Positions 11,061 through 64,000 of a stretch of 64,000 bases of DNA are shown piece by piece. A program made the position numbers and the translations under genes. The DNA comes from Capillidium heterosporum. Taxonomy: Eukaryota; Entomophthoromycota; Entomophthoromycetes; Entomophthorales; Capillidiaceae. The notes under the pieces were generated by a model. It was given only the letters and a program-made list of their open reading frames with translations. It did not search any database and was not told the origin of the DNA. The stretch is taken from contig WBMQ01000010.1 in NCBI GenBank assembly GCA_016630905.1, positions 62,001 to 126,000 on the forward strand, read 5' to 3'. Numbering within the stretch: position 1 is the stretch's first letter; the number at the start of each line of letters is the position of its first letter.

Positions 11061-13665
11061 ATGAGTTCTACCAACTTGCAAGAAATTTCCAACGATGTCG
11101 TCTTACAGAAGGTATGTATATTTTGTAGTGGTATATCTGTAGGCTTTGACTAACCTTTAAAATTTGTAGATCGACCGGCTCAAGAAGGATATCGACTACA
11201 TGCAACTGGAGATTAAAAGCTGCCTCAACGAAACTTCAAGCAACAAGTTACATCTGGCACTATACAAGGAGTTGGTCAAATTCAGCGTCAATGTGTTCAA
11301 GAAGAATGTGGAGACAGGATGCAACCGGAAGAGTTTGATCAATTACGAACTATTTTGCCTCAAAGAATTATCCAACAGTTCCAACATAATGCAGTTCGTA
11401 GGTACTTGTCAAGACGATAGCGACGACTTTCTAATAGCTATGGAGTGGGTCGAGGATGGAATACCATTAGACCGATTGATCCATCAACCTAAAATCGAGT
11501 TAGACCTGGTTAAAGTCCTTAATATTTCCAAGGAGATATCAAATGGTTTATCGTTCATACATAGTAGCAATATGTATCACGGCAACTTGACACCCGACTC
11601 TATCATCGTCAACCTTAGTAAAGATAGAGTAGGTGCCAAGCTGTTCAATTTCCGAAGGAGCCCCGATATCATAAGTGTAGAGATGGTTATGGGTCTTAAC
11701 GCCAAGAGTTCTGGTTCTCTGATGTGGATGGCACCAGAACTTTTACCACCTACCGTCCAAAAGCCTACCATTTTATCAGACGTCTACAGTTTCGGAGTCA
11801 TAGTTTGGCAGATGTTGGCGAGGGAGGACCCTTATCCTGAGGATTACGAAATCGTCAAGATGTTTACAGCCAAGCAGGAAGGGGTCATTAGGTCGTTAGG
11901 TAAAAGTTGCCCGGGGATCTTGCAGAATTTCATAAAGGAATGTCAGAACCCCTACCCTGAGCTACGACCAACTATCTACGAAATATCCAACTTTCTCAAC
12001 AACGTCTTTTTGGAGAAGGGAGATGGAAAGGTTAGACTGACTGCAAGTGTATTCGCCGATGTTTTCGATCTACCAGTTGTAGAGAAAGTTAGCGAGTTCC
12101 AAACTAGCGTCAGCGAATCGAACTTGAAGGAAGAATTGAATTTATTTTACTCCATGGTGAAGACTGAGTCGCTAAGCGTAGCACTGTTCTTTGGTACTCT
12201 GTACCACTTCGGAAGTCTGCTACCTATGGACGTCAAGAATCAAGTTTTGAATATATTCCTAAGTTTAGCTACCAAGTACTCTAAGGAGTTCAGCAATATT
12301 TCAAACTTACAGGCGTTCAATTTAAACGATTCACAGTGCCTTGACGCCGGTGCTAAAGCTGGACTCAGGCAACTGATATCCCACATCTCCAATACCTCGA
12401 AGTCAGAAGATAGAGAGTTGATCCGCACGGTAGTTACTAACTTATACTCGACAGCCTTCAACTTGAAAAATCCATATACTCAATTCTCCATGGGGTTGTT
12501 GGCTTTGTACGGTGTAGGGGTGAAGAAGGATGCATTAAAAGCATTCCAGTATTTAAGTGTGGCATCTAGTCAGTCCTGTCAGTTGGCCCAAAAGCTCCTA
12601 GGAGATATGTACTACTACGGTCGAGGTGGTCCTTTCAACTATCGTAAAGCTTTAGGGTGGTATAAACAGGCAGCTATCCAAAATGTCGCTTCCGCTCAGT
12701 ATAAGTTAGGTAAATGCTACCTGAAGGGTAAAGGTACCGATGTAGATTTCAACTTAGCATTGAGGTGGTTCGTAAAAGCAGCCAAGAATGAGCACGCTAA
12801 AGCCCAGGTCAAAGTTGGACGTTTCTACCTCGAGCAGGGGCCCCATGAACTCAATTTAAAAGCCGGTTTCCTGTGGTCCCAAAAGTCGGCCCAGAACTTA
12901 TCTAGGGACGGATGCCTTCAACTTTCCAAGTGTTACCTCAATGGTATCGGCGTCTCCAAGGATGAAAAGCTCGCCTTCAAATGGATCCAAGAGGCTTGTA
13001 AGAGTAGAACCAAAGAATCAAACTTCCTACTAGGTCTGTGCCATCTCTATGGCATAGGCTGCACTCCCGATAAGGCAAAGGCCATATATATATTCCTAGA
13101 TGGGTACAAGCTCGGTCACTTCCATTCCAGTTTAGCGTTGGCGACCATCCCGTTCGAATGTTTGAGCCAGGAGCAGATGTCCAAATCCACCCTCCTCTGT
13201 ATTTTAAGATTAGCAGCCGACCATCACAACAACATCGTCGAGATCTTTAGATTCCTGCTCATCAAAGATAGGTTCACCATCGATGCCTTCCAATGGTTAA
13301 GTGAAATGAATATGGATTCAGTACAGCTCTTTATGAAGCTGCTCATTGTGGCCTGGCCCCAAACTGTTTGGAACGACATATTATTCGGCTCCGTAGCCAT
13401 GGAGTTCTACAAGAGCTGGACCAAACATGAACTTACCGAAGCTTTCCACCTGCTTGCCTTCTGCTACCACTACTCTCCCGACCCTAAAGTTAGGAATTTT
13501 GAGAACGCCAAGATGTACTACACGTTCGCCATCGACTTTGGCCACAATTTGTCAAAAGTCCAGCTGGATAAGCTCAGCAGTTCCGATAAAGGTATTGTAG
13601 TACATGATAAGAACCAAGTGGTTTCCAAATTAGAAAGGAGGAAGTTCTTCTTTGGGCTCGTTTAA
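11061..13665 (+). CDS. Predicted pseudokinase with C-terminal Sel1-like repeats
   Basis: Exons 11061-11111 and 11170-13665 are joined by a 58-nt intron and encode 848 residues. Residues about 35-300 are a protein-kinase fold. The catalytic residues are replaced: the HRD motif reads HGN (154-156) and the DFG region reads FNF (176-178). MAPE (204-207), SDVYSFG (220-226) and the late RPT motif are kept. No glycine loop is evident. The C-terminal half carries at least five Sel1/TPR-like repeats of about 36 residues (for example LGDMYYYGRGGPFNYRKALG and LGKCYLKGKGTDVDFNLALR). Kinase-plus-Sel1 fusions are known in fungi. Here the missing catalytic residues point to a scaffold or adaptor; that is inference. 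Confidence 0.85.
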
Positions 13666-17259: not shown

Positions 17260-19508
17260 CCAAGATGTAAATACACAAGAGAAAGCTAAACCTTCATTGC
17301 CCGCCTGGAACGTAGTTTTTATTCTTCCATTCTTATACTAATTTAAAACAGCCTTTAGACAAGAAGTTAGAGGAGACCAACTTCTTCGAACAGTTCGATA
17401 AGACCTGGTCTGAACGTTGGACCGTATCAAGATCCAAGAAGGAGCGCCCCGAAGATAGTAAGGACCCCGAAGATCTACTGCAGTACAACGGTCTATGGGC
17501 AGTCGAAGAACCCCACAAGTACAAAGTCACCGAAGGGGACCAAGGTCTAGTCCTAAAACTTGCTGCCCACCACCACGCCATATCCTCCTTGTTCAAGAAC
17601 CCTATTCAAGTTATCGAGGAAAAGAAACCTTTCATTGTACAGTACGAAGTCAAGCTTCAGGATGGACTCCAGTGCGGTGGTGCTTACTTGAAGCTGCTGA
17701 CAGCCGACAAGGACTTCAATCCCATTAGCTTCAACGACAAGACTCCCTACACGATTATGTTCGGTCCCGACCGATGTGGTAACGAGGGTAAGGTCCACTT
17801 CATCTTGAGGCATAAGAACCCCTTGAACGGTATCGTTTCTGAGAAGCATCTAGTTTCGCCCCCTGCACCCAAGTCCACCACCTCGTTGACTACATTGTAT
17901 ACCTTGATCATCCGGTACTATTTTTCTATTTCTATCGACTAATCTTTTTTATAGCCCCGACAGCACCTACTCCATCTTGATTAACAACGAAGTTACGAAG
18001 AAGGGTAGCCTCAACTTGGACTTTGACCCACCAATCAACCCCCCTAAGGAGATCATCGATATCAACGATCACAAACCCGAGGACTGGGAAGATGATGAGA
18101 AGATCCCCGATCCTGAAGATAAGAAACCTGCCGACTGGGTTGACGAAGCCGCTATCCCCGATCCCACTAAATCCAAACCATCAGACTGGTTGGACAATGA
18201 ACCCCTCTACATATCAGACCCTTCAGCCAAGGCCCCTGAAGATTGGAACGATGAGGAGGATGGCGACTGGATCGCGCCTGAGATCCCCAACCCCAAGTGC
18301 GACCAAGTCTCTGGCTGTGGTACCTGGAAACATCCCTTGATCGCCAACCCCGAGTATCGTGGCCCTTGGGAACCCAAGCTCATCGCCAACCCCAAGTACA
18401 AAGGAGAATGGGAACCTCGTAAGATCACCAACCCCGAATACTACTTGGACAACGATATCGCGGGTAACTTGAGCCAGATCGGCGGTATCGGTTTCGAGTT
18501 ATGGACCATGCAGAGCGACATCCTCTTTGACAATATCTACATCGGACATTCGGAAGCTGAGGCCAAGGAGGTTGCCCAAGCTACCTGGGAAGCCAAGTTC
18601 AACGCTGAGGAGCAGCTCAAGGATTCTTTACTCAAGAGTGATGTTCCCGAAGATTCGGTAAATCCTTATTTTTCCATCTGCTTTTACTAACTTGCTAACT
18701 TTTAGGAAACCTTCGACTCCTACTTCAGTTTCATTGCTCACCACGCTACCCAACTTGCTAATAAGTTGCATCTTGACTATTACTTTGAATTAGTTGGCCA
18801 TAATATCCACACCCTCCTCGTTCAACTGAAGTTGGATGGGTATTTCGAAGTCGCCAAGTTTAACTTGTACAAGTTCATCAACCATGCCGTCGATGAAGAT
18901 TACTTGGGTCAAGCTTACAATAAAATCCAATCCCTGGTAGCCCAAACTGGTCTCGACAAGTACTTTGAGGCTGCCAAATTTCACCTGTTCAAGTTCGTCA
19001 GCAAGGCTATCGATGAAGATTACCTAGGTCAAGCTTACAGCAAGGTTCATTCTCTCCTTGCTCAAGTCGGTTTGGATAAGTATTTGGATGCTGCCACGTC
19101 CCAGTTGATCGAGTTCAAAGATAAAGCCATCGACGAGGATTACTTGGGTCAAGCTATTGACAACGTACAAACGTTCATCCGACTGGCCAAAAAGGACCCC
19201 TACGAGACTTTGAATCAGATGCCCCGTACGGCTGTTGGGCTCATTTTGGCCTTCATTCTGTTCTGGGCCATCTTTGCCAAAATTTTGGAGTTGATCTTCC
19301 CACCACCGGCTGTAAGTTTTATTTTGTTATATTTGTATGTTTGGTATAGTTTACTGATCTATCTTTTAAATTTTAGTTGTATGAGGATATCGAAGCGCGT
19401 AACCGACTGGCCCAAGGTCACAACCCCCACGAGCGTAAGGCCAACAAAGCTGACAAAAAGGTTGGAAATAATGCGACGTCGAGTGCTGCCAACCCTAAGG
19501 CCGAGTAG
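17156..19508 (+). CDS. Calnexin (ER lectin chaperone) with extra lumenal repeats
   Basis: Calnexin binds monoglucosylated glycoproteins in the ER and helps them fold. Exons 17156-17311, 17352-17914, 17955-18657, 18706-19311 and 19377-19508 encode 719 residues. There is a signal peptide (residues 1-21). The lectin domain contains QCGGAYLKLL and TPYTIMFGPDRCGNEGKVHF. The P-domain has four type-1 motifs (KPEDW, KPADW, KPSDW, APEDW), then type-2 motifs (GTWKHPLIANP, GPWEPKLIANP, GEWEPRKITNP). GGIGFELWTMQSDILFDNIY closes the lectin fold. One transmembrane helix (about 650-672) and a short charged cytosolic tail follow. The odd part is an insertion between lectin domain and membrane of about 150 residues. 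It carries three 40-residue tandem repeats, making the protein clearly longer than the 560-600 residues usual for fungi. Confidence 0.95.
18832..19191 (+). repeat. Three tandem 120-bp repeats inside calnexin
   Basis: Units at 18832-18951, 18952-19071 and 19072-19191 have an exact 120-nt period. Each encodes 40 residues beginning LDxYxxAA/VA and containing a conserved core (VDEDYLGQAY, IDEDYLGQAY, IDEDYLGQAI). A degenerate earlier unit begins LDYYFEL at about 18772. The units look amphipathic and helical and lie in the ER lumen just before the membrane helix. Confidence 0.92.
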
Positions 19509-20680
19509 ATGATGGCGACTATTAAAAATAAAAATGCAAATAAATAGGATTTTGAAATTTGTGGCGATTTTATTAGGTGTATGGTTTGTGATTACAGTAC
19601 AATATATGTTGGTAGGATTTTGTCTTCATTTTTAAAGCTTTTATGTGAACTTGTTTATAATTGAATGGAGGTTCATGTTCATATGTATAGATCCGATATT
19701 TGGATGCAAAAGTAGTAGATAGAAGTTTATAATTCTATTTCAACCTTTGATTGTAAAGCTGGTCCCTTTAAACTATTTAAGTGAATCGGTAGCAATTTTG
19801 GCATTTCCATCCATTTAATAATACCTATGTCTCTGGCATTAATCTACTAAGAGGTTTCTAGTATTAAATAAAGTTGTTAGGATTTGCCTTCGGTTCATAT
19901 AAGAGGCTATCATCATTCAGGTTATTACATCTAAACTCACTATTTCAATCCAGGCTTGATCTCCACAAACTAACATTTCCTTTTGTAGGTGTGTTGTGAT
20001 AAAGATGGGCTTAAGTAACCATTAGTTTGGAAAGGTAGATTTACCACATCAAAAAACCATCAGTTACTTTTACGGTTCAATTGATAGATATACATATTTG
20101 TCTGAGTATGAAACTTATTTCGATGGGGAATTTCCAAATTTCCATCTATTTATTTTTCAATTGAGTCTAGCTTAACTCTAATATAAATCAGAAGGGCAAG
20201 TAGTCTTCCAACAGGTAGTCTGTTGAGGTACATTGTTTTCCGCCCAATACTTTATACTGGATAGTATAGCTTTTCTTTCAAAGTGTTGGCAAGGGGTTCC
20301 TAGTTAGGGAGGGTACTATTTTGTTCAGTGAATCTGTATAGATTTCCATAAATTTAATTGTTGAAAATTGCCTAAATATCTGAGCAGAGGTGTATTAATG
20401 ATTTACCCAATAGATATGCCTTAATTGTGCTTTAGTAGGTAGCATAGTCTATTTGGTCTACCCTTAATATATTCCGAAAAACAGTGAGTTTTTTACAAGT
20501 TCAACTACACTAAATTACCCAACTTTTATGAACATAGTAATAACTTATTTTGTAGGAATTAGTTTTTGGAAAGCTTTAAAAGCCGATATTTTCTAAAATT
20601 TATGACTTTACATTTGTATTCAGTTCTACAAAAGCATAGCGTTAAAGAATTGACAAATACACCAGATAGCTGTAGAAGTG
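19509..20680. other. Intergenic region
   Basis: AT-rich 3' flank of calnexin (an AATAAA-like signal AAATAAATAGG lies near 19540) and the upstream region of the left Ku-like gene. No other feature was recognised. Confidence 0.4.
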
Positions 20681-23600
20681 ATGAGCGAACCCCCAATTAG
20701 TCCAACCGTTTTTGTAACTTTGTTTAAAGGAACTGTGGACCGGAAGTCCTATGAAAAGGATTCCGGTTTAGAGGCTTTTAAGCACGGTCAGAGTATTGTC
20801 CGAAAAGGTAAGCTACGCTTCAACCATTAATTCTTCACACGATCTAAATCGCCCATCTTTTCGGACGCCAATGGTCCAATTTGCCATTTTTATGTTCTGT
20901 ATGTTTAACCTTTAGGTTTACTGATTTATGTAAATCAAGAACTCAAATATTTACAAAACATCTAGCTATGTATAAACTGAACTTAAACTAACAATACATT
21001 CCATCCAAACCTTTAGTGATAGTTTCAGCTTTGAATGAGTTCGACCGCAACAGATTCATCGGCAACCACGGCTTCAACTGGATCCGCCCCGGTCTGAGGA
21101 AGGAGGATGTGAGGGACATCACCTACCCAAAGACTTCGAATTTCCTTACCGAAGCAAACCGCTACAAGTAAAGAGTTTCATAAGTGCATGCTAATGTTAT
21201 TCCAGCACAGACAATGTCGACAGTGTTCCGGATATCAAGTCGACCTTGGAGGAGCTTAGGGAGGTTATAGCGAGAGGGCCGATTGGCCACAAAAGCAAGG
21301 TTTGGGTGTTTACAAATCTCCCCCCAAACGAGGCAGCAGCCATTGCAAGAGCCTTCAGCCCCGAAACAAGCAGGTTCTTTATTATCTCTCTGCCGGTCAA
21401 GAGCATTGCACGGGTGGCTGATTGCGATGAGTTCCCATGCTTCACCATCCCGACCAATGCCGACACCAGCTCGTTTGGGCCCAGGCATAGGTACTCGAGG
21501 TTTGTTCGGACCATCCTCCAACAAGAGTACCCGTCCAACAAAGTGAAGATGACGCACGACTGCAAAGCCGAAGTACTCGAAGCCGCCGCCTGCTACGACT
21601 GCCCGCTCAAGCTAAACAGCATCAAGGGTGCTCAAATACATTCCAAGGGAAGTGGTGCCGCACACCCCCGAAGTCAACTCCTTCCTGCTCACGTCCGGTG
21701 GCGCCGGCAAAAAACCAAGCAACCTGTTCCACAACGTCTACCAATGGTGCAGCCAGCGACAGCAGCTTGCACTGGTCCAGATCACCCCCTCCAAAAGATA
21801 CGCAATACTAAGGCCGACGTGCGAGCCGAGCCTGCACCTCATTGTCCTGGAGCCGAAGCGCATCACCACCAGACTCCGGGCCGAAATCAGCAGGTTTGAG
21901 GACAGCCGGTCGGTTTTCGAATACGCAAGGCCTCCAGGGCTTATCCGGATCCCGAGCCCGACATGCGACCTGACGACAATGCACTACTCGCTCCTTACGA
22001 CCCAGTGGAAAAGGGACCCAAGGGCGCAAGAGCAACGCCTCTGCTCCTTTTTGAAGCTCGACCCTCCCGCATACTTGGATATCGAGCTGATGTAAGCCGT
22101 GTGCCCAAAGGCAGATACTAACGAATTGCTTAGGCTGAGCAGCCTGGCATTTATCTATACCCAAGAGAAGCACAGCCCAAGCCCAAACGGGATCGGAATC
22201 AACTTCGGGCCCGGGAACCTAAGGTACTTTATAAATGCTCGATGTTATTTAGCCAGATTTGTAGGAGCCTGCAGGAGATGGTGCCCAACGACGAGCACGT
22301 TGCCCTGATGTTCAGCAAGCTTATAGGGCTTATGCCTCCCCAAGAAGAGACCAGCAGCACGGCTCCCAATGCCATCCCGACACTTGAAAGGTTCGAGTAT
22401 GAGGCCTTGACACGGACTGGCGACTACAGGCCATCGGCGGCTAGGCTTGATGAGCCAATGCTGCCGGTGCACGAGGAAGAGCTGCATCCTATTAAGAGCG
22501 AGTCGGAAATCGACGAGCCAGATCCGCCAGTGCATGAGGAACAGCTGCATCCTGTAAAGAGTGCGTCGAAGCCTGGAGATGAGGCTCCAGCCACAATTGC
22601 TATTAAAGACTCTTCCACAGCCGAGGTAGAGCATGACCCAGCTTCCAACCCACTGGACTCGAACAGTGCAGATCACAGCGTGCTCCCTAGAAGAGGTAAG
22701 AGACCAGGTACCAGCCTTTTAGCATATGTATCTAACACATAACTAGGACACTCGCCTACCTTGGATTCGCATGAGGTTGCCAGCATATATCGCCCATACA
22801 AAGGTATAATGACCTTGTAGCTTCCTAATGCTCATAACATTTTATCTACTTTCCAGATCCCAAGAATTCGGACAGCGAGCCAGATCCAACACTTGCACCA
22901 GAACCAACCGAGCTGGTGAATACCATCTCCAACACAGAAGCAGAAGAGGCTCTCGCCACCCCAACCAAAGCCGACACTCCACCTCAAAATAGCATTTCGA
23001 ATCCAGAACCCGATACAACCCTCGAAATCCCATCCGATTCCAGAACCCCAACCCAAAGGAGAACCAGAGCAACCAGTAACAAAATCTCACCTATCCCCAA
23101 ACCCGTCACTAAAGTTAAGCCTCCACCAGCCAAGAAGCCGAAAAACGACGAGGCTTCAAATGAACAAAACATCAAAGAGCCAGTAAAGAAGTCTAAGCGG
23201 ACTTCCAAGGCTACGAAACAGCAATTGGTCATCGAAGACCCACCATTGCCGACATCCTCTGGGCTGGGACCCAAGCTTCAAATCCCTTCAAAGGACAACC
23301 CACTTTCTGAAGGTGCGTCCAATACTGACAGGCCTAAATTTTCACTCAAAGCTGCACAGGAATCGGCACTTTTAGCTTATTTCCCACAATCTAGTAAACC
23401 TAAACAACCCTCCAAGAAAACAACTGAAAGCGCTTCAGGATCTAAAGCTACGACATCGCAGGACCCTATTCCAGGACCCCCGCCTGTTGTACAAAGGCGG
23501 CCAAACTTTATGCATATCTTGAATGCTGAGGATAGTCAAATTTCCAACAGCGAAGTTACATTTACCGAGCCTCAAGATTCGAAGAATAATCAACCTCAAG

Positions 23601-25852
23601 CCATCTCCCATCCAGATATATACCATCCAGGTCCGACTACTGCTTCATCCAACACCTTTAAAGACTCCTCCCAGAATGATCCATTTAACGTATATTCTTC
23701 AAAACTTCAATCAGAGTTTGGACTTCCCTCCCGAAGCTTCGAAAAAATTGACTCGTATGATGTCTATGGTACTGACCAAGCTAGAAGTTTCCCGACCGAT
23801 CCATCAGGTACCAGTTTATCTTATTCTTTATTTAATAGTCCAAATTCTAGCCAAGAGCTCAATGAACAACCCAGGTATCAGGTTCGAAAGTGATACTAGG
23901 CGAACCAATGAGCTGCCAAACCCAAGTCGCCCCACACTCCATCCGAACGATCCGATCCAGCAACCTTCCATCAGGAAGATAACTCTTGCCTACCAAAAGT
24001 TCTCCAAGGCCCAATTTCCAGTTGCCACCTCCAACTCTAACTGGCGACGGTGCCAGTGGTAATGGAAACGATCTCCCCGTTTTGATTAGCTCTGAAGCGC
24101 TTGATGCAAAGCGACCCGGCACAAACGCAATTTCATTGAATCAGCCATCTTATCGAAGCAAAGAAGCTCCTGAGCATCATTTCCCAGCTGTAAGTATTGC
24201 GATCGATCCTAGGCCAACAGGTAGGAGTGTGCATGCGGATCAAGATAATCGATTTAAACCGGATTCAAACATATACAATCCCTATTTCAATGCGCGTGAA
24301 CACGTACCTTTACTTTCAAGTAATAGTGTATCCTTACCTAGCGACAAAAGTGTTTACCACAGGGACAAAGTCACCGCTACCCAGCAGCTGCATTTGGGGT
24401 TGGATAACAAGCCTACAGATCGAAATGAGGGCCCATCTTCGATACCAGCGATCCTTGGGAGCCCCAATTCAAGAGAGTCAATTTACTGGTGCCAGTATAA
24501 AAGGTAAAAAGGTGCTCCGAGCTGGGGAGACTAGTATTCAGTTTCATCCACAACCATATTCTGCCCATAGACCTGGTGTTGGTGATAGGAACAGTGGAGC
24601 TTTACAATCCGCAATTCGGTAGAAACCCAAGTATTAGTAGTTCAGCAAATCTCAACTCCGAACCTCACAAATACCCACATGAGGCGGACACAGTTCACCA
24701 GCGTGAAGGGCAGGTCAAGCAACTTCGAAACGCATCTCCATATTTGAAACATCTAGATGATTTTACAAGCAACCAAACGCCGCCGCCGTTTAACAACAGC
24801 GAGAGCAGTTCGTTCTATAACAATCCAGCGTATCGAAGGCAGTCGGTGCACCCCTCTACCAACAATCCTACCGAGTCCGAAAGCCTCCCTGGAGCGATCC
24901 ATTACCCGCCTCTCAATTATCATCCAATTCGTCCTAGCATGCAGCAGCCTACAGCCGATAGCAGCAGCTACACCAGGCCGCCAAATAATCCACCCCACTT
25001 TGCCCGCAGTGCAATTAGTTTGAATCATCCCTCCAGCACCAACCACAACTCACCTAAACCTACAAACGCTCAGCATAACTTCAACAGCGATACAGGTACA
25101 CTGCACTACGGAAGTAGTTTGCGCACTGAGACGACATCGGAAGCAGTAAGTCGAGCTTATCCAGCACCAAATTACCGAGTACTTGCTCCTCTACCCACCC
25201 GTACTCCTGAACCATTCAGCTACCGCGATAGCAACCAAGGCTACACCTTCAGCAGGCCTTCTGAACAGCAATACGCGAGTTCGTCTTACCCGGTTGGTGA
25301 GGGTAGACCTACAGGTCCAAGTCACAGCCCCGACTACCGTAGAAACTCGTTGGCACCACAGCGATTTATCCCTATCCAACCTGCCAACGAAACTCCACCC
25401 AATTACCCGCCTAGTGCCCCACACCAGGCTTCACATCAGCCTCCACATCCCTATCCTTCCAACCTCCTACCCCGGCCCCATACACCCTACCTCAGCAACC
25501 CTAATCACTCATCGAACTACTCCCAGTCCCCCAATCCCCAATCCGACTTTAGTAACTTTAATCGACGGGACTCCAATACACGTCACAGTAGTAGGATACC
25601 ATCGGCAGCAGCACCAGTTCATCGATATAGCCCTACCAACACCCTTCACCACAATTTAATCAAGGACACCCTGGCTCCCAGCCCCACAATATTGGCCACC
25701 CTCAACCTCACTATTCGACCGATCATTCAACTCGTAACCAAGGGAACCACCACCCTGGTGATGATTCCCATAATAGATCGAATGAGAACCAAGAGTCTCG
25801 AGGTAGCTCGTCCAAATCCAACCGCAACTCCTTGAGTAACCTCCTCAATTGA
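20681..25852 (+). CDS. Large protein, possibly a divergent Ku70-like protein with a long disordered tail (left copy)
   Basis: Exons: 20681-20807, 21017-21167, 21206-22091, 22134-22223, 22253-22695, 22747-22803, 22857-23874, 24000-24503 and 24542-25852, roughly 1500 residues. Every junction is in phase provided one extra G at 21626-21628 is skipped. That frame break is real in this sequence and is shared with the right copy. A second frame change near 25630 separates the last 70 codons (stop at 25852). The first ~560 residues resemble the order of Ku70: a VWA-like start, KVWVFTNLPPNE (compare the Ku strand before its metal-site region), CYDCPLKLNS, LFHNVYQWCSQRQQLALVQI and VALMFSKLIGLMPP. The rest is disordered and rich in Pro/Ser/Asn/Gln/His. 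The Ku call is by weak pattern only. The frame breaks mean it could be a recent pseudogene. Confidence 0.4.
20984..23049 (+). repeat. Left arm of a 2066-bp inverted repeat
   Basis: It matches the reverse complement of 30942-33007 with no length change. I found one base difference (C at about 21126, against a T-equivalent in the other arm). The arm starts in intron 1, about 33 nt before the acceptor, and ends inside exon 7 of the annotated frame (in GCC-rich coding DNA at ...CCAGAACCCC). Beyond both ends the two copies become diverged at once. The arm is visibly richer in G+C than the flanks, including its introns. Confidence 0.97.
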
Positions 25853-27153
25853 AATGATTCTTTTCTCCGCATTTTGACTATTGAATTTCAGACTTTTACT
25901 TTTATAATAAATTTATATCTTTGCTTCCAATAGTTTATTTTAGATATAGCACTGTATATTTCATTTTGACTTGGCTATTTTACTATCAATAGCCCACTTT
26001 ATATGATTTAAAACCAGCTTTACATTTTATCAAAAGTAGTCAAATTGCTACCTATGTTTCTTAGTAGTATCATTTGGGTTTATTATAAACTTCAGTGAAA
26101 TGACTGCTTGGAAGTAGCCGTTTAACATCTAGTGTAGTTACATGCTGCGTTGATTGTTTGGGAGTTTCATATACCTATTAATACTGAAGATGTCATCCTA
26201 GGGTTTTAATAAAGAACTTCATTTATAACGTTTCATACAATATCTTGATTTCCAGCTAGCCAAGAAAGTGAAGATGAATTAGTAAAGTTGGCATATGCTT
26301 TAAGCTGATACTATTAGCTATCAACTTAAAATAGATATTTGATTCCAAGTTAGCTTGGGTGTCTAAGTTTTAAGTTTGAATTCTAGGTCATATCAGCAGC
26401 AATAGACTCGTTAAAAGGATCGACAGGCAACAATTTTGATTTGATACGGATGCCTTACTGTATTTGTGTTTCTTTAGCAAGTCAAAATACCTGCCCTACT
26501 AGTATGACTTTTATGGGTTTAAACCTTCAGCTGCTCTGCTTACAATTGCCTACCAGATATGGCTTTCCCAAAAAGTTAGCTTGATAGGTCCCAAATCAAC
26601 TGTCGTAAAGCTAGTTATTTTGACTACTTTACAGTGCAACTAATTGGAACCTTGAGTCCATCTTTTTGGATAGATCCTAATGTTGGGCAATGTGTAATAG
26701 AAAGATAAGGGTAAGATAAGCTTACAAGAGATATCCTTGCAATTTGAGGAAACGAGGAAATTTCTTTCGGCAAAGCCTAAAGCTACAGAGGTTAGAGTGT
26801 CCCTTTTACAATATATGGTTGGATCTTAGAACAATACTATAAAGATTTGTATACACCTTGATACCAACAATATATCTTTCAATTCATATTTGTAGCGCAA
26901 TTGTCAAAGATGTGCATTTTACAATAAACCGGCTAAACTTGTAAAATTTACTTACGGAAGCCTAGAACAACTTGTATAGATTACCAAAACGAAGTCACAG
27001 ACAAATGGAATGTGATTACCAAAAAAGATTTGGTGACTGACCAATACTAGAACTCCAAAAGTAAATAAATTTATTAACGCATTTACAGGTAAGCAACATG
27101 TAAAGAAAAGGTAAAGAAAAATAAAGCGGGATGCAAAATGCATTTGTAAGAGG
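25853..27153. other. Intergenic region inside the inverted-repeat spacer
   Basis: AT-rich 3' flank of the left Ku-like copy and of the gene on the opposite strand. AATAAA-type motifs (ATAATAAATTTAT near 25905) follow the stop. No other gene was recognised. Confidence 0.4.
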
Positions 27154-27963
27154 CTAGAGCTCCAAAAAGTTTTTCTTACCATGGTAGTGCAAAATAAAAG
27201 CAACTGTCATCGTAAACAATACAACAAAATCATTATCCAAGACATGATTGAAGATCAAAGTTCCTAACTTGGTCGCTCGCTTAGGGATCTCAAACTTAGC
27301 CAACGGGTTCTTCTTAATAAAAGGGTTGGTGGCGTTTGGAAAGAGCGATTCCAAATTGCTTACACCATCCTCAGGTAAGAAGTTTAAACTCCAAAACGAT
27401 TTGTGGGCGTCCCAGTAGAACCTCAATAAGTTGGATTTGAAGACCATTTGGATACAGTAGGTGTTGACGCCGCTTCTATAGAAACTTAAATCGTTGTAAA
27501 AGTGTTGTGAAAGGAACAGTCCAACGTCGTAGCGGTAAGGTGAAGCGTTCTCGTTGAGCTGCAGTTGCCCATAAACGAGGTCTCCGTCAGGGTCTTCAAA
27601 GCTGGCGTTGCCTTGACCGAACTGCAGCTTATACTGAGGGACTTTATCATCATCAGTTATCTCGTAATACACTCTTTTTACAGTGCCTCTTGCTGTACGA
27701 GCGTAAAACTTGAAAACGTAGGGTTTATGACTAACCGGCATATTGAAATCATTTAAGCTGTTGCCTTCTTCGATAATGTTGAACTGGCTTTCGTCGTTGG
27801 TGCGAGTAGTAATTGTAGACTCCTGAAAGGAGCTCAGTTCGTGGATCTCGGTGTGCATCTGGATCTCGCTGTTGTTGATGCGTTTAGCGTCCCCTGCAAA
27901 TTGGATGGGTTCCGATACCTCGTAGATGCCGTCGGAAGTTGGGTGCTCGACAAATACTGACAT
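27154..27963 (-). CDS. Hypothetical protein with C-terminal membrane segment
   Basis: A single-exon gene of 269 residues. The body is rich in short beta-like stretches with aromatic residues (KPYVFKFYARTARGTVKRVY, YKLQFGQGNASFEDPDGDLV, CIQMVFKSNLLRFYWDAHKS). That recalls LURP/Tubby-like beta-barrel proteins, but I cannot confirm it. Near the end DFVVLFTMTVAFILHYH is a probable membrane anchor close to the C-terminus, so it may be tail-anchored. It lies in the spacer between the two inverted-repeat arms and would be reversed by an inversion. The coding frame is long and clean. Confidence 0.65.
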   Translation of the reverse strand: MSVFVEHPTSDGIYEVSEPIQFAGDAKRINNSEIQMHTEIHELSSFQESTITTRTNDESQFNIIEEGNSLNDFNMPVSHKPYVFKFYARTARGTVKRVYYEITDDDKVPQYKLQFGQGNASFEDPDGDLVYGQLQLNENASPYRYDVGLFLSQHFYNDLSFYRSGVNTYCIQMVFKSNLLRFYWDAHKSFWSLNFLPEDGVSNLESLFPNATNPFIKKNPLAKFEIPKRATKLGTLIFNHVLDNDFVVLFTMTVAFILHYHGKKNFLEL

Positions 27964-29759
27964 CGTAAAAAGTTAAAGTAGGTTGGGGCTCAAATTTAAG
28001 TTGCTTGTAAATGGCTTCAAAAGATTGATTCAAATTACACATTCAAATCTAAGAAGCTAGCCTGTATTATGAACTCCATATTCCACAAAAGTAGCCAATG
28101 AGGTGTGTGAAGGAGTGATTTTGATTGGCATTGTAGTGGTTGATTTATTGCTGATGAAGATATACTTTATAAAGAAAACCAAGAACATCACATGTTCTTG
28201 AGCGCTCATAAAAGTTTATGGAAATAAAGGTCACACTTAGGCATCTTCTGATCTAAGTGGGGTGGTGAAGTAAGGTTCAGGCATAATATAGTGGCTGCAT
28301 CTACTCATATTTTGGGAGATTTGCTAAGTTCAAGCTCGATAATGTAGGCATAAACTTGAAAAGTATATTCAGTTGTTCAAATCACATACTACAGGTTCGT
28401 TTTATTAGCTTACATGACTTGTTTGGTTGCTATCCACCAGAAGTCATCCAAAGTATATGTTTTAGCTGTCTAGAAACTGGAGAAACTTATCAAGTTTACT
28501 TATCCACCTCAGTTTATCAAAAGGGAACTTTAATCATCCTTAGAATAATGGTTTCTATCAGGTAGAAATGCAATCGAACAGCCAGCTGCACTTTAGTTTA
28601 TCGGGCTTTTTTACAAAAAGGATTGGCTAGTTTATTAAAAGTTTTATTCCAATACTCATTGGAAGCATGTGCCCTTAGTTATCAAAATTCGTATACCTGT
28701 AAAAGGCACAGGGTATGTAATATCGATGGTAGAATATCATTAAAAGCTAAATGTAGTAAATTAGAAACTTACTATGATAAAATTTATTCATTAAAATACA
28801 GTATACGCTATATGGCTAGAGTTTACAAATCAATAAATTTAATGGATAAATAGCTACCAAACTCTTCTTCACTATAATAGCTATTATAACAGGTATAAAG
28901 AACTAAAAGCTCTTTCTAGTAGGTTGATGTGTGAAGTAGGTGTATCTTATAAGCAGCTATATATAGGACGCTAAGAAATCAGCTTAGTTGTGTGAGCAGC
29001 TTATCTTGTCAAAGAAACTCATATATAACAAGCCATCCATATCAAGTCTAATTGTTATCTATCAGTCCTTTCAACGATGCTACAACTGATGGCATAGTGT
29101 TGAGTCCAAATTTTAAACTTAGGCTTCCAAGCTAACCTGGAGTTGAACATCTATTTTTTGCGGATAGCTAATCGTAAAGATTAAAGCGGTATATCAGCAT
29201 TACTATCTATCTTTACTAACCTAACCGATAATCAAGGGTATGATAGAGGGAGTTGTAAATGAAATTTAGGGGTAAATTTTTGTAGCGCTATTTTAGCATT
29301 AGTAAGAGGATGAAGTTGATAGATAAGTGACGTTATATGAAAGCTATTGCACACAAGTACTTATCTTTGAACAGCCGCTTTATCTAGTTTTATATTGAAC
29401 AAAGACAGCCCTAAAGCAACTAGATATTAGCTCGAATGCTTTCGATGAGTCAGCTATATAGTTAGTTTTAGAACATCTAGAGCGTGCTCTTGATAGTAGC
29501 ATAGCAAATATAAAATTTAAATACATGAGGTATCAAAAAAAACTACTGGAATCAGGAAAATAAGGTTTATATCGAGTGTACAGGCTTATAATTTTACAGT
29601 TGGAATACGGAGAGAAGTTTTGTTTGATAAAGTACAAATCGGGAGGAACTACTTTTAGATTCCTGAGTTGGAATGAGATGGGTAAAAAGCTTAGAACTTG
29701 GCAACTGGATAGTGAGAAGAAGCCTGAATAGGGCAATAATTTGAAAGGATTACTTTGAA
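27964..29759. other. Long intergenic region
   Basis: AT-rich. Short frames at 28356-28565 and 28623-28853 lack an obvious start context or family. Nothing else was recognised. The proximal part holds the promoter of the 269-residue gene. Confidence 0.4.
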
Positions 29760-32700
29760 ATTTCATATTCTAATTATGCTTACCGTAAGTATTGTCCCCA
29801 GTAGGATGAGGGTTTCCTTGATTTCAAGCTGAGTAGGTGATTGAGTAGAAAGATTATGAGGGAGGAACGCGGTGAGGCTGGGAAGTAGAGCTCTTGGTTT
29901 ATTTGCAGTGGAGAAGTGCTGGTAAAGACTATATCGGTGGACCACTATTGCGGTGAATGCCAACGTACCGATATAACGTGAGCTAAAGCCTCGCCAGTTG
30001 AGACTACGGGGATCAGATTGAGGAACTGGGAGTAGTTTGCTGGACAAATTGGATTAGTGAGGTAGGAGGTTGAACATGTAGGAGTGTGAGATCTGACGTA
30101 AGGGATTAGTCGGGTAATTGAATGGAGTTTTATTAACAGGTTGGATGGGGATGAACTACTGTGATGCCAGGGAGTTCTTATGGTAGTTGAGGCTGTGAAC
30201 TGAGCCCATATATTTACCTTCACCAATCAGGTAGGGTAAATTCATGTACTGCTATTTGAAAAGCCTGTTGAAGGTGTAGCCTTGGTTGTTATCATGGTAA
30301 CTGAATGGTTCAGGGGTACTGAGTGGGTAGAGGGCAAGTACTCGATAGTTTGGTGCTGGATAAGTACTCGGTTTACCGTATTTGATGTCATTTCAGTGTG
30401 TAGGCTACTTTTGTAATACACTATATCTGTATCATTGTTGAAGTTGTACTAAATATTGATAGAGTTGAGTAAATTGCGATCGATACTGAAGGTACAGTAT
30501 AAGCCAACTTCATTTTGGATAAAGCGAGTTGAATTATATGGCAGTTTAATGTGGCTATTTAGATTGGCTATAGGCTTTACATACTAGAATGAATTGGATA
30601 GTTAAAAAGTGGACAATGAATCACTTCAAGAAGACTATTGTATTCAGCAAAACTGTAGGTAGAGGAGTGGATCGATTATCACTAGTATGTCGGACTGCTA
30701 TAGAATGAGCTACTTTCGTTATTTCTAAAGAATGGAGGAGTTTGGCTGCTTGTAAAGTCATGAGTGCTGTAAACACGGAGACATATTTCGAAACTACTTG
30801 ATCTGTTCTTCTCGTCAGTAAGGGATGCCCATCTTATATTAATATATGTGAACCTGTGTCAAAGCAGTTAGATTTTAAATACTTGACTATCCTCAGCGTT
30901 CAAGATATACATAAAATTTGGCCGCCTTTGTACAACGAGTGGGGGTTCTGGAATCGGATGGGATTTCGAGGGTTGTATCGGGTTCTGGATTCGAAATGCT
31001 ATTTTGAGGTGGAGTGTCGGCTTTGGTTGGGGTGGCGAGAGCCTCTTCTGCTTCTGTGTTGGAGATGGTATTCACCAGCTCGGTTGGTTCTGGTGCAAGT
31101 GTTGGATCTGGCTCGCTGTCCGAATTCTTGGGATCTGGAAAGTAGATAAAATGTTATGAGCATTAGGAAGCTACAAGGTCATTATACCTTTGTATGGGCG
31201 ATATATGCTGGCAACCTCATGCGAATCCAAGGTAGGCGAGTGTCCTAGTTATGTGTTAGATACATATGCTAAAAGGCTGGTACCTGGTCTCTTACCTCTT
31301 CTAGGGAGCACGCTGTGATCTGCACTGTTCGAGTCCAGTGGGTTGGAAGCTGGGTCATGCTCTACCTCGGCTGTGGAAGAGTCTTTAATAGCAATTGTGG
31401 CTGGAGCCTCATCTCCAGGCTTCGACGCACTCTTTACAGGATGCAGCTGTTCCTCATGCACTGGCGGATCTGGCTCGTCGATTTCCGACTCGCTCTTAAT
31501 AGGATGCAGCTCTTCCTCGTGCACCGGCAGCATTGGCTCATCAAGCCTAGCCGCCGATGGCCTGTAGTCGCCAGTCCGTGTCAAGGCCTCATACTCGAAC
31601 CTTTCAAGTGTCGGGATGGCATTGGGAGCCGTGCTGCTGGTCTCTTCTTGGGGAGGCATAAGCCCTATAAGCTTGCTGAACATCAGGGCAACGTGCTCGT
31701 CGTTGGGCACCATCTCCTGCAGGCTCCTACAAATCTGGCTAAATAACATCGAGCATTTATAAAGTACCTTAGGTTCCCGGGCCCGAAGTTGATTCCGATC
31801 CCGTTTGGGCTTGGGCTGTGCTTCTCTTGGGTATAGATAAATGCCAGGCTGCTCAGCCTAAGCAATTCGTTAGTATCTGCCTTTGGGCACACGGCTTACA
31901 TCAGCTCGATATCCAAGTATGCGGGAGGGTCGAGCTTCAAAAAGGAGCAGAGGCGTTGCTCTTGCGCCCTTGGGTCCCTTTTCCACTGGGTCGTAAGGAG
32001 CGAGTAGTGCATTGTCGTCAGGTCGCATGTCGGGCTCGGGATCCGGATAAGCCCTGGAGGCCTTGCGTATTCGAAAACCGACCGGCTGTCCTCAAACCTG
32101 CTGATTTCGGCCCGGAGTCTGGTGGTGATGCGCTTCGGCTCCAGGACAATGAGGTGCAGGCTCGGCTCGCACGTCGGCCTTAGTATTGCGTATCTTTTGG
32201 AGGGGGTGATCTGGACCAGTGCAAGCTGCTGTCGCTGGCTGCACCATTGGTAGACGTTGTGGAACAGGTTGCTTGGTTTTTTGCCGGCGCCACCGGACGT
32301 GAGCAGGAAGGAGTTGACTTCGGGGGTGTGCGGCACCACTTCCCTTGGAATGTATTTGAGCACCCTTGATGCTGTTTAGCTTGAGCGGGCAGTCGTAGCA
32401 GGCGGCGGCTTCGAGTACTTCGGCTTTGCAGTCGTGCGTCATCTTCACTTTGTTGGACGGGTACTCTTGTTGGAGGATGGTCCGAACAAACCTCGAGTAC
32501 CTATGCCTGGGCCCAAACGAGCTGGTGTCGGCATTGGTCGGGATGGTGAAGCATGGGAACTCATCGCAATCAGCCACCCGTGCAATGCTCTTGACCGGCA
32601 GAGAGATAATAAAGAACCTGCTTGTTTCGGGGCTGAAGGCTCTTGCAATGGCTGCTGCCTCGTTTGGGGGGAGATTTGTAAACACCCAAACCTTGCTTTT

Positions 32701-33380
32701 GTGGCCAATCGGCCCTCTCGCTATAACCTCCCTAAGCTCCTCCAAGGTCGACTTGATATCCGGAACACTGTCGACATTGTCTGTGCTGGAATAACATTAG
32801 CATGCACTTATGAAACTCTTTACTTGTAGCGGTTTGCTTCGGTAAGGAAATTCGAAGTCTTTGGATAGGTGATGTCCCTCACATCCTCCTTCCTCAGACC
32901 GGGGCGGATCCAGTTGAAGCCGTGGTTGCCGATGAATCTGTTGCGGTCGAACTCATTCAAAGCTGAAACTATCACTAAAGGTTTGGATGGAATGTATTGT
33001 TAGTTTAGATCCAATTTGTATTAGTAAAATCAATTTTCATACCACTTTGATCATAACTTATCACTTCAGACTTCTAAAGAGGTTTTAGGCAACAGAATCT
33101 GATCTAATAGTATATATATTTGAATCCCAGCTACATGAATCACCTAACCCGAAGGTTAAATGAACAGAGCATCGATATAGTATATGTGACTTTCAATGTT
33201 CGAATGATGGGGATGTAATTCTTTAATGAATAAATGCTGCTACAGTAGCTTACCTTCTTTGACAATAATCTGACTGGTTTTAAAAATATATAAGCCAGAA
33301 TCCCGTCCAGGGAACTCGTGGTATATAGTATTTCTAAACAGAGTCATGAAAACAGTAGGGTTTTTCAGTGATTCACTCAT
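29760..33380 (-). pseudogene. Right copy of the Ku-like gene with decayed 3' half
   Basis: It is convergent with the left copy. Exon 1 (33254-33380) is 127 nt, as in the left copy, and open. Its product begins MSESLKNPTVFMTLF against MSEPPISPTVFVTLF, about half identical overall. From intron 1 the sequence enters the near-identical arm (33007 down to 30942), including the same extra G (complement at about 32363-32365). Past the arm it is homologous to the left tail but badly eroded. About 435 bp corresponding to left 23050-23484 is missing, and the region matching left 25180-25700 (30350-29790) contains stop codons and indels. The 5' part could still be transcribed. The complete protein cannot be made as written. 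Confidence 0.7.
30942..33007 (-). repeat. Right arm of the 2066-bp inverted repeat
   Basis: Reverse complement of 20984-23049. Position x in one arm pairs with 53991-x in the other. It shares the exons, introns and frame break of the left arm. Right of 33007 and left of 30942 the similarity falls abruptly to that of old paralogues. Confidence 0.97.
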
Positions 33381-34638: not shown

Positions 34639-35403
34639 ATGGACTATCAAGGCTACTGGGGCCCTATAACTGCTTCAGTCGACTGGTGCGAACAGAACTA
34701 TGTCTATTCCTACTACATAGCTGAACTCTTCAACACGTTATCCTCCATCTCCATGGTATTAGTAGGCGAATTTGGAGCCAGGTACAATTTTACCAACCAC
34801 TGGAAGCAACGAATGTGTTTCCATATGATATCAATAATAGGTATAGGTTCTATGCTATTCCATAGCTCCCTCAAGTACTACACCCAAATGTTAGATGAGC
34901 TGCCTATGGTATGGACGGCCGGCTTAGTTTTAAGTTTATCTTTGGAAGCTACCCTTCAAGATAAATTCAACCCTATTATCAACTACTTTCTCTTTGTAGT
35001 TACCTTTATCTCTACTTTACTAACCGCATTTACCCACGGTGCCTACCAAGTATTGCTATTCCGCTTAAGCTATACTTCAGTCGAGTTATCGGCAGTTGCC
35101 GTTGGTATATTTTCCTACACCAAGCTACCTAAAGGTTCCAAGTTACGTAAAAGTAGCAAGATTTCGTTACTGTTAGGTTTAGTTGCTTTACTGTGCTGGA
35201 TAACTGATAACGAGAAGTGTTCAGCTTTGAGAAAGATGTACGTTAACCCACAGTTGCACGCCTTCTGGCACTTTTTTATTTCGCTGTCGGTCTACCATGG
35301 TATTTTATTGTCCATCCATAAACATCAAGGAGGCAAAGATATTGACGATCGTATTTCTTATTTTATGGGTCTGATTCCTTACATCACTAAGAAGGCCGAT
35401 TAG
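34639..35403 (+). CDS. Alkaline ceramidase (YPC1/YDC1/ACER family)
   Basis: Family members hydrolyse ceramide to a sphingoid base and fatty acid in ER/Golgi membranes. An intronless gene of 254 residues, the usual length. The N-terminal signature GYWGPITASVDWCEQNY is present, with D15, W16, E18, N20 and E29 at the spacing of the family's calcium site. The zinc-site residues are all there: S71 and H75 in SMLFHSS, D86 in MLDELPM, H207 and H211 in NPQLHAFWHF. Seven hydrophobic helices are visible. The C-terminus ends KKAD, not a perfect KKXX retrieval signal. It appears fully functional. Confidence 0.95.
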   Translation: MDYQGYWGPITASVDWCEQNYVYSYYIAELFNTLSSISMVLVGEFGARYNFTNHWKQRMCFHMISIIGIGSMLFHSSLKYYTQMLDELPMVWTAGLVLSLSLEATLQDKFNPIINYFLFVVTFISTLLTAFTHGAYQVLLFRLSYTSVELSAVAVGIFSYTKLPKGSKLRKSSKISLLLGLVALLCWITDNEKCSALRKMYVNPQLHAFWHFFISLSVYHGILLSIHKHQGGKDIDDRISYFMGLIPYITKKAD

Positions 35404-62083: not shown

Positions 62084-64000
62084 AACGACTATTTGGACCT
62101 CAAAGTTGATTCTTATAACGGTTGTGTTTTAAACTATCGATTTGCTCTCTACCTTTAGCTGAGGTTGGCTTGCTCTTCTATGCTAGTTGAATTTATTTCA
62201 TTGTAATTGGAGATATGCTGTGAATATTGTGCCATCACCTGCATTCTCCTATCGGCATACGATTGGCCTATTGCTCTGGCCAATAACAGCATATTTTGCT
62301 TGCTTTTACATAATTTAATTTTCTAGATTACATACACCTTTTCACACTAAGATTGGGAAGAGTTTAGAGTATTGGTCAAAATCAATTTGATAATCGACCA
62401 ATTTGCCAAACCATTTCAATAACACTCGAAAAGCAAATCTTTGGATCTCACTACCTTCTACTTGTTAAACAGATATACAGCTCCTCAAAACTTGACTGTA
62501 TATCTATTCCAATCTAATCCAGTTATTGGATCTTCAAGTCATTACTACGATACAAACTAGAAGCCTCCTACTATATACTGCTAAACAGTCATCAAGTTTG
62601 GCTGGAATGCTAGTTGTTTACCGAAACCAACCTATGACCACTTTCTTTATAAAAGATGGCCATCACAGCACAGTATGTCCAAATTTAACCTATTCCATAA
62701 AGATAAAGAGGTGCTAATTTAATACTGATAGTATCTAAGAATCCGATCATTAAAGCAACGTATAACTGCTTCTACGAAAACAAAAGTAGCCACTATAGTT
62801 CAGCATATTCTGATTAGACCTATTTTGCAAAGATAAAGAGTCATATACTTAATATCAATGGTATTTAAACTCTTATCTTTTATCTTAACCCCAACATTTA
62901 ACAGTACTTGGCCTCGTAATGTGATATAGATCTGCACCACAGTCACATTTTTCGAGATCAAGGCGAGTTTTGCAGCTGAGGTTGACATGTTGGATTTTCA
63001 ATACAACCACATTACCACTATACTGGCCTATTATATATATTTACCGAGGCAAAGTATTAGTTGGAAGCTGATAGTGATGGTCATATTACCAAATATATCA
63101 AAATGTTGTTGGAAAAGCTTAAATTTATAAAGAGTATAATGTTAAATTTATAAAATGTTGACATATAACATTACATATCTATTTGGCATATTAGATCAGC
63201 ATATTACTTCGTTTCAATGGTTTAGGCTACTCATAAAATAAAAGGTTGATTTTAATAACAACAGTGGCTATACATTATAAATACTTTACCTATTAAAAAT
63301 ATCGCACAAAAATCGATCTAGCATTGTTGGTTTTTTGTAAAAGGACAGTTCAAAAACAATACTTTGATAGCAAAGTCACACTAACTAATGTTTAATGGCG
63401 GGGCAGCACAGAGAACTTATCTTAGCATCTTTTACCCAAAATATAGACTCTCCTCCAGATAAGATTAGTGTAAAGGACACGTATACAAAAAATTCAAGGT
63501 AGAATCTAGTAATCCGATTAACATCAGGTATTGATCATATCGGTTTTTGAACACATGCTGTTGTAAAAGGGGGTGTTCTATATAAGATTCCACATACTTT
63601 CCCTACTAATTCAAAGCTTTTGAGCTTAGAAAGTTCAAAGCTATAAACCAAATCAGTTGTTACGGTTCCTAGACCCTTGCTATATATCAAGAATAGCTGT
63701 CAGCATCAAACTAAAATATTGCCTTTTGGAATTTAATTCGGGGTAGACCAACTTGGTCCAGGTACAAGTAATCTTAGATACAAGGTTATACTGCTGTCCT
63801 AAAGAATAGGGCAAGTTTCATTTCTAGAATGGGACCCTGTATTGCAATTGCGTAATTTCAGCTATAGAAAGCGAAATTTTTGACCTACTAAACACCTGTC
63901 ATAGTTACTGGATACTATTTGGCATCCCATAACAGATTGGTACCTATAGCAAAAGTGGCAGATAATTTTGACAAGTACCGATACAAATGGCAAATATCTA
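62084..64000. other. Intergenic region, right edge
   Basis: AT-rich. It holds the HIRA promoter. An imperfect duplication is seen at about 62658-62745 and 62790-62875, sharing AAAGATAAAGAG and similar blocks. No convincing ORF or RNA gene was found up to the edge. Confidence 0.4.

What the first reader, a model, noticed from the sequence alone, without database searches (positions are those of the whole stretch)
20984..33007. Near-identical 2066-bp inverted repeat embedded in diverged paralogous genes
Arms 20984-23049 and 30942-33007 have equal length, no indels and a single mismatch that I noticed (near 21126 against 32865). Immediately outside, both at intron 1 and at the tail, the two gene copies differ strongly: exon 1 proteins are about half identical and the tails carry deletions. 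An old tail-to-tail duplication with one homogenised block is the signature of gene conversion between inverted copies, with one break in intron 1 and the other in coding DNA.
Basis: partly seen in the sequence, partly recalled or inferred. Interest (0 to 1): 0.88.

Follow-up and report, generated by a model that had tools for sequence, protein, structure and literature searches.

The report
Gene conversion between inverted gene copies
Two old, diverged copies of an unknown fungal gene lie tail to tail, and a 2-kb block within them is almost letter-for-letter the same, most likely because one copy was used as a template to overwrite the other; it is a clean example of a known process.

Summary
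In detail: arms 20984-23049 and 30942-33007 (inverted) agree at 2065 of 2066 positions, without indels, and no third copy was found in the 29.5-Mb assembly. Both sides of both arms are homologous but old: 132 of 381 aligned sites differ on the 5' side, 397 of 1139 in the tail. The breaks are sharp. All 258 intron bases inside the arms are identical, so coding selection cannot explain it. Interlocus gene conversion after an old tail-to-tail duplication is the best reading. Additions: (1) the 3' break is a 431-bp deletion junction in copy B at a 13-bp near-direct repeat; (2) copy B's tail is decayed, so A-to-B copying is likelier; (3) fourfold-site GC is 175/279 in the arm against 160/406 in the tail and peaks inside the arm, hinting at repeated GC-biased conversion. 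The gene has no relative in the searches made, and an unexplained one-base frame change lies in both arms. The host is probably an entomophthoralean fungus (one gene). An assembly or polishing error could not be tested without reads.

The parts
20984..23049 (+). Arm A: homogenised block, from the last 33 bp of intron 1 into exon 7 of copy A
   Evidence: 2065 of 2066 identical to arm B; sharp ends
30942..33007 (-). Arm B: the same block in copy B
20681..20807 (+). Exon 1 of copy A (own model, no RNA)
   Evidence: ATG, open frame, GT donor at 20808
33254..33380 (-). Exon 1 of copy B, same length (127) and phase, 48% identical protein
21017..23807 (+). Exons 2-7 of copy A: 21017-21167, 21206-22091 (frame change of one base between about 21616 and 21640), 22134-22223, 22265-22695, 22747-22803, 22857-about 23807
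   Evidence: GT..AG introns keep the frame; frame change unexplained
23050..25850 (+). Tail of copy A outside the arm; long open stretches in more than one frame, possibly joined by introns
29535..30941 (-). Decayed tail of copy B: 10 stop codons in 304 aligned codons of A's frame, deletions
   Evidence: frame ends at 30895 soon after the deletion junction
23037..23049 (+). First 13-bp repeat ATTCCAGAACCCC, at the 3' end of arm A
   Evidence: single fused copy in B begins at 30954
23468..23480 (+). Second 13-bp repeat ATTCCAGGACCCC; the 431 bp between repeat starts are missing in copy B
23481..23539 (+). 59 bp just past the deletion, 6 differences from B 30941-30883, all transitions; less diverged than the rest of the tail
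27157..27963 (-). Orphan gene in the spacer between the copies (269 aa, ends in a hydrophobic stretch); would be turned round by any exchange between the arms
   Evidence: no homolog at E <= 1 among 115 candidates; single in the genome

Best explanation
A whole gene, from about 115 bp before the ATG to past its 3' end, was duplicated long ago in inverted tail-to-tail orientation. The copies diverged by about 35% and the tail of copy B decayed. Recently, DNA repair in one copy used the other as template (interlocus gene conversion) and made a 2.07-kb block the same, most likely from A to B. The tract ends 33 bp before exon 2 on one side and exactly at a 431-bp deletion in B on the other: either the new strand re-annealed at the 13-bp repeat and so made the deletion, or the tract stopped at an older deletion. 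I think conversion happened more than once, keeping this zone alike while the outer parts escaped. Shown: identity, sharp breaks, homologous old flanks, deletion at a short repeat. Inferred: conversion as the process, its direction, and its recurrence.
For: 2065 of 2066 identical in the arms against 132 of 381 sites different on the 5' side and 397 of 1139 in the tail, with homology on both sides at matching places, so the block did not arrive as an insertion at an unrelated site. All 258 intron bases in the arms are identical. Breaks are sharp. The 3' end is a deletion at a 13-bp near-direct repeat and the 5' end lies beside a 70-bp net length difference, as expected if unlike sequence limits the exchange. 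A to B: 10 stops in 304 codons and large deletions in B's tail, none in A's frames. Recurrence: fourfold GC 175/279 in the arm, 160/406 in the tail, Fisher 1.9e-9, peak 54/69 inside the arm, above all 405 control windows, maximum 0.717; 59 bp past the deletion differ at only 6 sites (1.4e-5 against the tail rate, picked after seeing it).
Against: Mean tracts in yeast duplicates are given as about 50 to several hundred bp, at 83-99% identity in the rows I saw (PMC3924818, passages), so 2066 bp between copies now 35% apart is unusual. The GC peak could be codon preference of one domain: a neighbouring kinase gene reaches 0.717, and arm introns have GC 0.32-0.48 against 0.33 for intron 1. Both arms share the unexplained frame change, which does not fit simply with copy A as a maintained gene. 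No outgroup, so no proof of direction.
Confidence: 0.85

Rival explanations
1. Assembly or polishing artefact: the arms differ in life, and the assembler or polisher made them alike, or one arm is a misjoined copy.
For: No reads could be examined. The pair is a near-perfect repeat, the kind that polishing can homogenise. A one-base frame change is present in both arms.
Against: Both arms sit in one 1.62-Mb contig with different flanks. Polishing cannot turn about 35% difference into 0.05%, though it could raise, say, 98% (inference). Flanks are homologous at the right places, which a random misjoin would not give.
Confidence: 0.07
2. Invertible switch: recurrent crossing-over between the arms flips the 7.9 kb between them, putting the intact tail A behind exon 1 of A or of B; the arms are kept alike by this exchange.
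For: Geometry fits: exon 1 A and B have equal length and phase and both splice into the same exon 2 sequence; arms are inverted and near-perfect.
Against: No alternative orientation seen (one assembly only). Exon 1 differences lie 15/14/16 on the three codon positions, no sign of protein constraint on two used first exons. The other tail is decayed. No mating-type or recombinase gene recognised in the open frames scanned.
Confidence: 0.04
3. Recent duplication with fast mutation of everything but the arms, by selection or by a repeat-directed mutation system such as RIP.
For: Tail differences are mostly transitions (317 of 397) and lean to C:G-to-T:A reading A to B (215 against 102); the 5' flank does so less (82 of 132; 44 against 38) (Fisher 1.0e-4). 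DNA methylase matches exist in the genome (5).
Against: No CpA or CpG preference: CA 48/156, CC 68/161, CT 53/148, CG 46/112. RIP composite index of tail B is only 0.05, and 48 of 127 window stretches are above 0. The arms, the best target, are untouched. Introns in the arm are as identical as exons.
Confidence: 0.02

Closest known systems
Interlocus (ectopic) gene conversion between duplicated genes, as reviewed for yeast and rodents (PMC3924818, passages seen)
   Same: Paralogs share a homogenised tract with sharp ends between diverged flanks
   Different: Tract of 2066 bp, longer than the yeast means given there (about 50 to several hundred bp); flanks about 35% apart; one end is a deletion at a short direct repeat
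Arm-to-arm conversion in chromosome palindromes (abstract starts in the listing, e.g. PMC3403216)
   Same: Near-identical inverted arms on one chromosome, presumed conversion between them
   Different: Short arms, 7.9 kb between them, no sex chromosome known here, and diverged homologous flanks
Mating-type switching by inversion in Komagataella and Ogataea (abstract starts in the listing)
   Same: A segment between two inverted repeats
   Different: No mating-type gene recognised; the arms are gene bodies; no second orientation known
wtf genes of Schizosaccharomyces pombe (abstract starts in the listing)
   Same: Lineage-specific genes with reported nonallelic conversion and decayed copies
   Different: Here two copies only; no sequence relation tested or claimed

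Membership tests
Interlocus gene conversion | Tract of near-identity inside paralogs with diverged homologous flanks on both sides | tested here: met
Interlocus gene conversion | Silent and intron sites homogenised as well as coding sites | tested here: met
   258 of 258 intron bases identical; sole difference is silent
Interlocus gene conversion | Non-reciprocal transfer with a known donor | tested here: inconclusive
   decay of B's tail and GC favour A to B; no outgroup
Interlocus gene conversion | Tract length within the range reported for duplicates | tested here: not met
   2066 bp against about 50 to several hundred bp as yeast means; not a strict defining feature, and fits repeated events
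Interlocus gene conversion | Both copies supported by reads | not testable with these tools
   no reads held
Repeat-induced point mutation | C-to-T changes preferring one dinucleotide (CpA in ascomycetes, recalled) | tested here: not met
Mating-type inversion switch | Mating-type gene within or beside the invertible segment | tested here: not met
   7 HMG-box matches in the genome, none in the window; the one on this contig is 1.45 Mb past the window's end. Other mating-type domains were looked for only through the Pfam scans
Transposable element | Many dispersed copies with unrelated flanks | tested here: not met
   two places found, homologous flanks

The most novel reading that the evidence does not exclude
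The arms are a working recombination device: repeated exchange between them keeps them identical and GC-rich and flips the 7.9 kb between, so that one intact tail is served in turn by two different promoters and first exons.
Probability: 0.04. Interest if true: 0.7.

Novelty: new member of a known kind. Interest (0 to 1): 0.33.

Why it matters
Conversion between duplicated genes is well known. This is a sharply bounded case in what looks like an entomophthoralean fungus; a search for that group with gene conversion (29 papers, 20 listed, judged by titles and abstract starts) showed none on nuclear gene pairs, in a library that lacks most subscription journals. If repeated conversion is right, one pair shows tract ends, a deletion at one end and a GC bias together. 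It also shows a 2-kb perfect repeat unmutated in a group where repeat-induced mutation has been suggested with caveats (PMC11105155, passages).

Tried and rejected
Relatives of the gene: Pfam on pieces and on the spliced query, NCBIfam, PDB sequences (one hit at E 1.2), the large protein collection (the 8000 candidates sharing most words were scored, none at E <= 1): nothing. By eye, from memory, the protein recalled Ku or MED25. The genome has two Ku matches and one MED25 match elsewhere. The query meets those loci only at E 0.25 or worse, and in the best case not at the Ku core; rejected. A single-sequence model of part of exon 3 had mean pLDDT 34, so no fold search was made.

Frame change near 21616-21640, in both arms: introns that would restore the frame were listed, none with the branch motif scored; unresolved between a true shift, an odd intron and a base error. 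In the tail of A some frame changes could be introns (e.g. a donor at 24504 just where the frame ends); unproven.

Mating-type locus: no HMG-box match in the window. RIP: rejected on context. Telomere: no tandem array in the first 10 kb of the contig, and no exact TTAGGG x3 in the genome. Codon constraint: exon 1 15/14/16; tail 89/96/120 over the codon positions (p 0.07), 56 of 131 single-change codons silent against 31% expected under an assumed transition weight of 8: weak or past constraint in the tail.

An earlier count gave the deletion as 416 bp from BLAST ends; the exact spacing is 431 bp. In one search I tested 6 differences in 64 bp, counted by eye; the recount is 6 in 59 bp past the arm (a first try was out of register). 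L031 was fetched to place the fungus by rDNA and not used.

Full report
What was checked. The arms are as described: 20984-23049 and 30942-33007, inverted, 2066 bases each, one mismatch, no gap. The mismatch is silent. A search of the assembly (29,545,739 bases, 44 contigs) found the arm at these two places only, both in one contig of 1,623,223 bases; the window is 62001-126000 of that contig.

The host. The ceramidase gene at 34639-35400 has its closest named relatives in Massospora, Entomophthora and Neoconidiobolus (five of the best six hits, 42-47% identity; the fourth-best is unnamed; 73 hits in all). The host is probably an entomophthoralean fungus; this rests on one gene.

The genes. 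Copy A has exons 20681-20807, 21017-21167, 21206-22091, 22134-22223, 22265-22695, 22747-22803 and 22857 onward, with GT..AG introns of 38-53 bp after a first intron of 209 bp. The models are mine, without RNA. In exon 3 the open frame changes by one base between about 21616 and 21640, in both arms. Copy B has an exon 1 of the same length and phase. No relative of the protein was found. The same protein collection gave 73 relatives of the ceramidase, some in this fungal group, so the collection holds such fungi.

The flanks. Outside the arms the copies still align: 20566-20932 with 33490-33132 (65.8%) and 24702-25413 with 30814-30107 (69.8%). On one alignment 132 of 381 sites differ on the 5' side and 397 of 1139 in the tail. 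In 50-bp windows identity rises from about 0.5-0.8 to 1.0 within one or two windows at the 5' end; at the 3' end the block stops at a gap.

The ends. The arm starts 33 bp before exon 2, about 13 bp from a stretch where B's intron is longer (279 against 209 bp). On the 3' side copy B lacks 431 bp of copy A, between two 13-bp repeats, ATTCCAG[A/G]ACCCC, at 23037 and 23468; B keeps one, with the arm-side letter. The next 59 bp differ at 6 sites, all transitions, fewer than the tail rate predicts (1.4e-5; picked after seeing it). Copy B then lacks about another 1.1 kb of A.

State of the copies. B's tail has 10 stops in 304 ungapped codons aligned to A's frame, and the deletion throws the frame, which ends at 30895. 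A's tail is open in stretches of several frames, without stops in the two stretches counted (160 and 420 codons). Exon 1 shows no codon constraint between A and B (15/14/16).

Mutation pattern. Tail differences are 317 transitions and 80 transversions, 5' differences 82 and 50 (Fisher 1.0e-4). Reading A to B, the tail has 215 C:G-to-T:A and 102 opposite transitions. There is no dinucleotide preference, so this is not the classical RIP pattern; why the tail is richer in transitions than the 5' side is not explained.

GC pattern. Fourfold sites in the arm are 175/279 GC, in A's tail 160/406 (Fisher 1.9e-9), in exon 1 8/19. Along the gene the value reaches 54/69 in the 150-codon window 21378-21826 and falls to about 0.33 past the arm. 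Among 405 windows of 71 control frames (window outside the locus plus fetched loci) the highest was 0.717 and 3 reached 0.70; 0 of 71 whole frames reached the arm's 0.627 (maximum rounds to the same). This fits repeated GC-biased conversion, but one domain's codon preference could do the same; introns in the arm (GC 0.32-0.48) stand little above intron 1 (0.33).

Why conversion. Insertion at an unrelated place is excluded by homologous flanks; coding selection by identical introns. For comparison, among 184 kb of this contig that I held, a self-comparison (matches of 150 bp or more) shows another inverted pair of 1152 bp at 98.2% with no homologous flanks, and two other inverted paralogous stretches at 68.8% and 65.1% that show no near-identical patch.

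One event or many. Passages of a review give means of about 50 to several hundred bp for yeast duplicates by a likelihood method, and about 500 bp minimum length in one study (PMC3924818). A 2066-bp tract between copies now 35% apart is unusual. Either the zone never diverged much because it was converted again and again, or one unusual repair event ended at the 13-bp repeat. The GC peak and the less diverged 59 bp favour the first, weakly.

Direction. The arm reads as an open, GC-rich gene body, unlike B's decayed tail, so A to B is likelier. The frame change shared by both arms is a point against a simple picture of A as intact.

Literature. Searches; seen as listings with abstract starts. 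Passages were seen of PMC3924818 and PMC11105155, outline and abstract of PMC10294615. PMC11105155 says RIP has been observed only in Dikarya and may be active in Entomophthorales, with major caveats. None of the listings shown named this locus.

Verdict. A real, well-bounded conversion block between inverted paralogs of an orphan gene; a known kind of process with interesting ends.

Noticed in passing
L028:4631-5780 and L030:6987-8135 (contig C2 24631-25780 and 46987-48135): A second near-identical inverted pair (1152 bp, 98.2%) about 21 kb apart, without homologous flanks; a part of it also occurs at C2:1345416-1345649.
   Followed up: partly
62703-63429 and L014:2858-3582: Inverted paralogous stretches, 68.8% over 750 aligned positions, no homogenised patch.
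   Followed up: no
24660-25850 against 29540-30860: Differences between the tails are 80% transitions against 62% in the 5' flank, with no dinucleotide context; unexplained.
   Followed up: partly
21616-21640 and the matching place in arm B: One-base frame change in the middle of a long open reading frame, present in both arms.
   Followed up: partly
27157-27963: Orphan 269-aa gene in the spacer with a hydrophobic C-terminal stretch; no homolog in the protein collection.
   Followed up: partly
18814-19155: Direct tandem repeats of about 120 bp (about 71% alike) inside an open reading frame.
   Followed up: no
contigs C20 and C29 of G000: Some 5S rRNA genes on one strand lie about 9 kb apart, as if 5S sits in the rDNA unit.
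   Followed up: no
11200-13662: Single-exon 821-aa protein kinase with Sel1 repeats; highest local fourfold GC among the controls.
   Followed up: no
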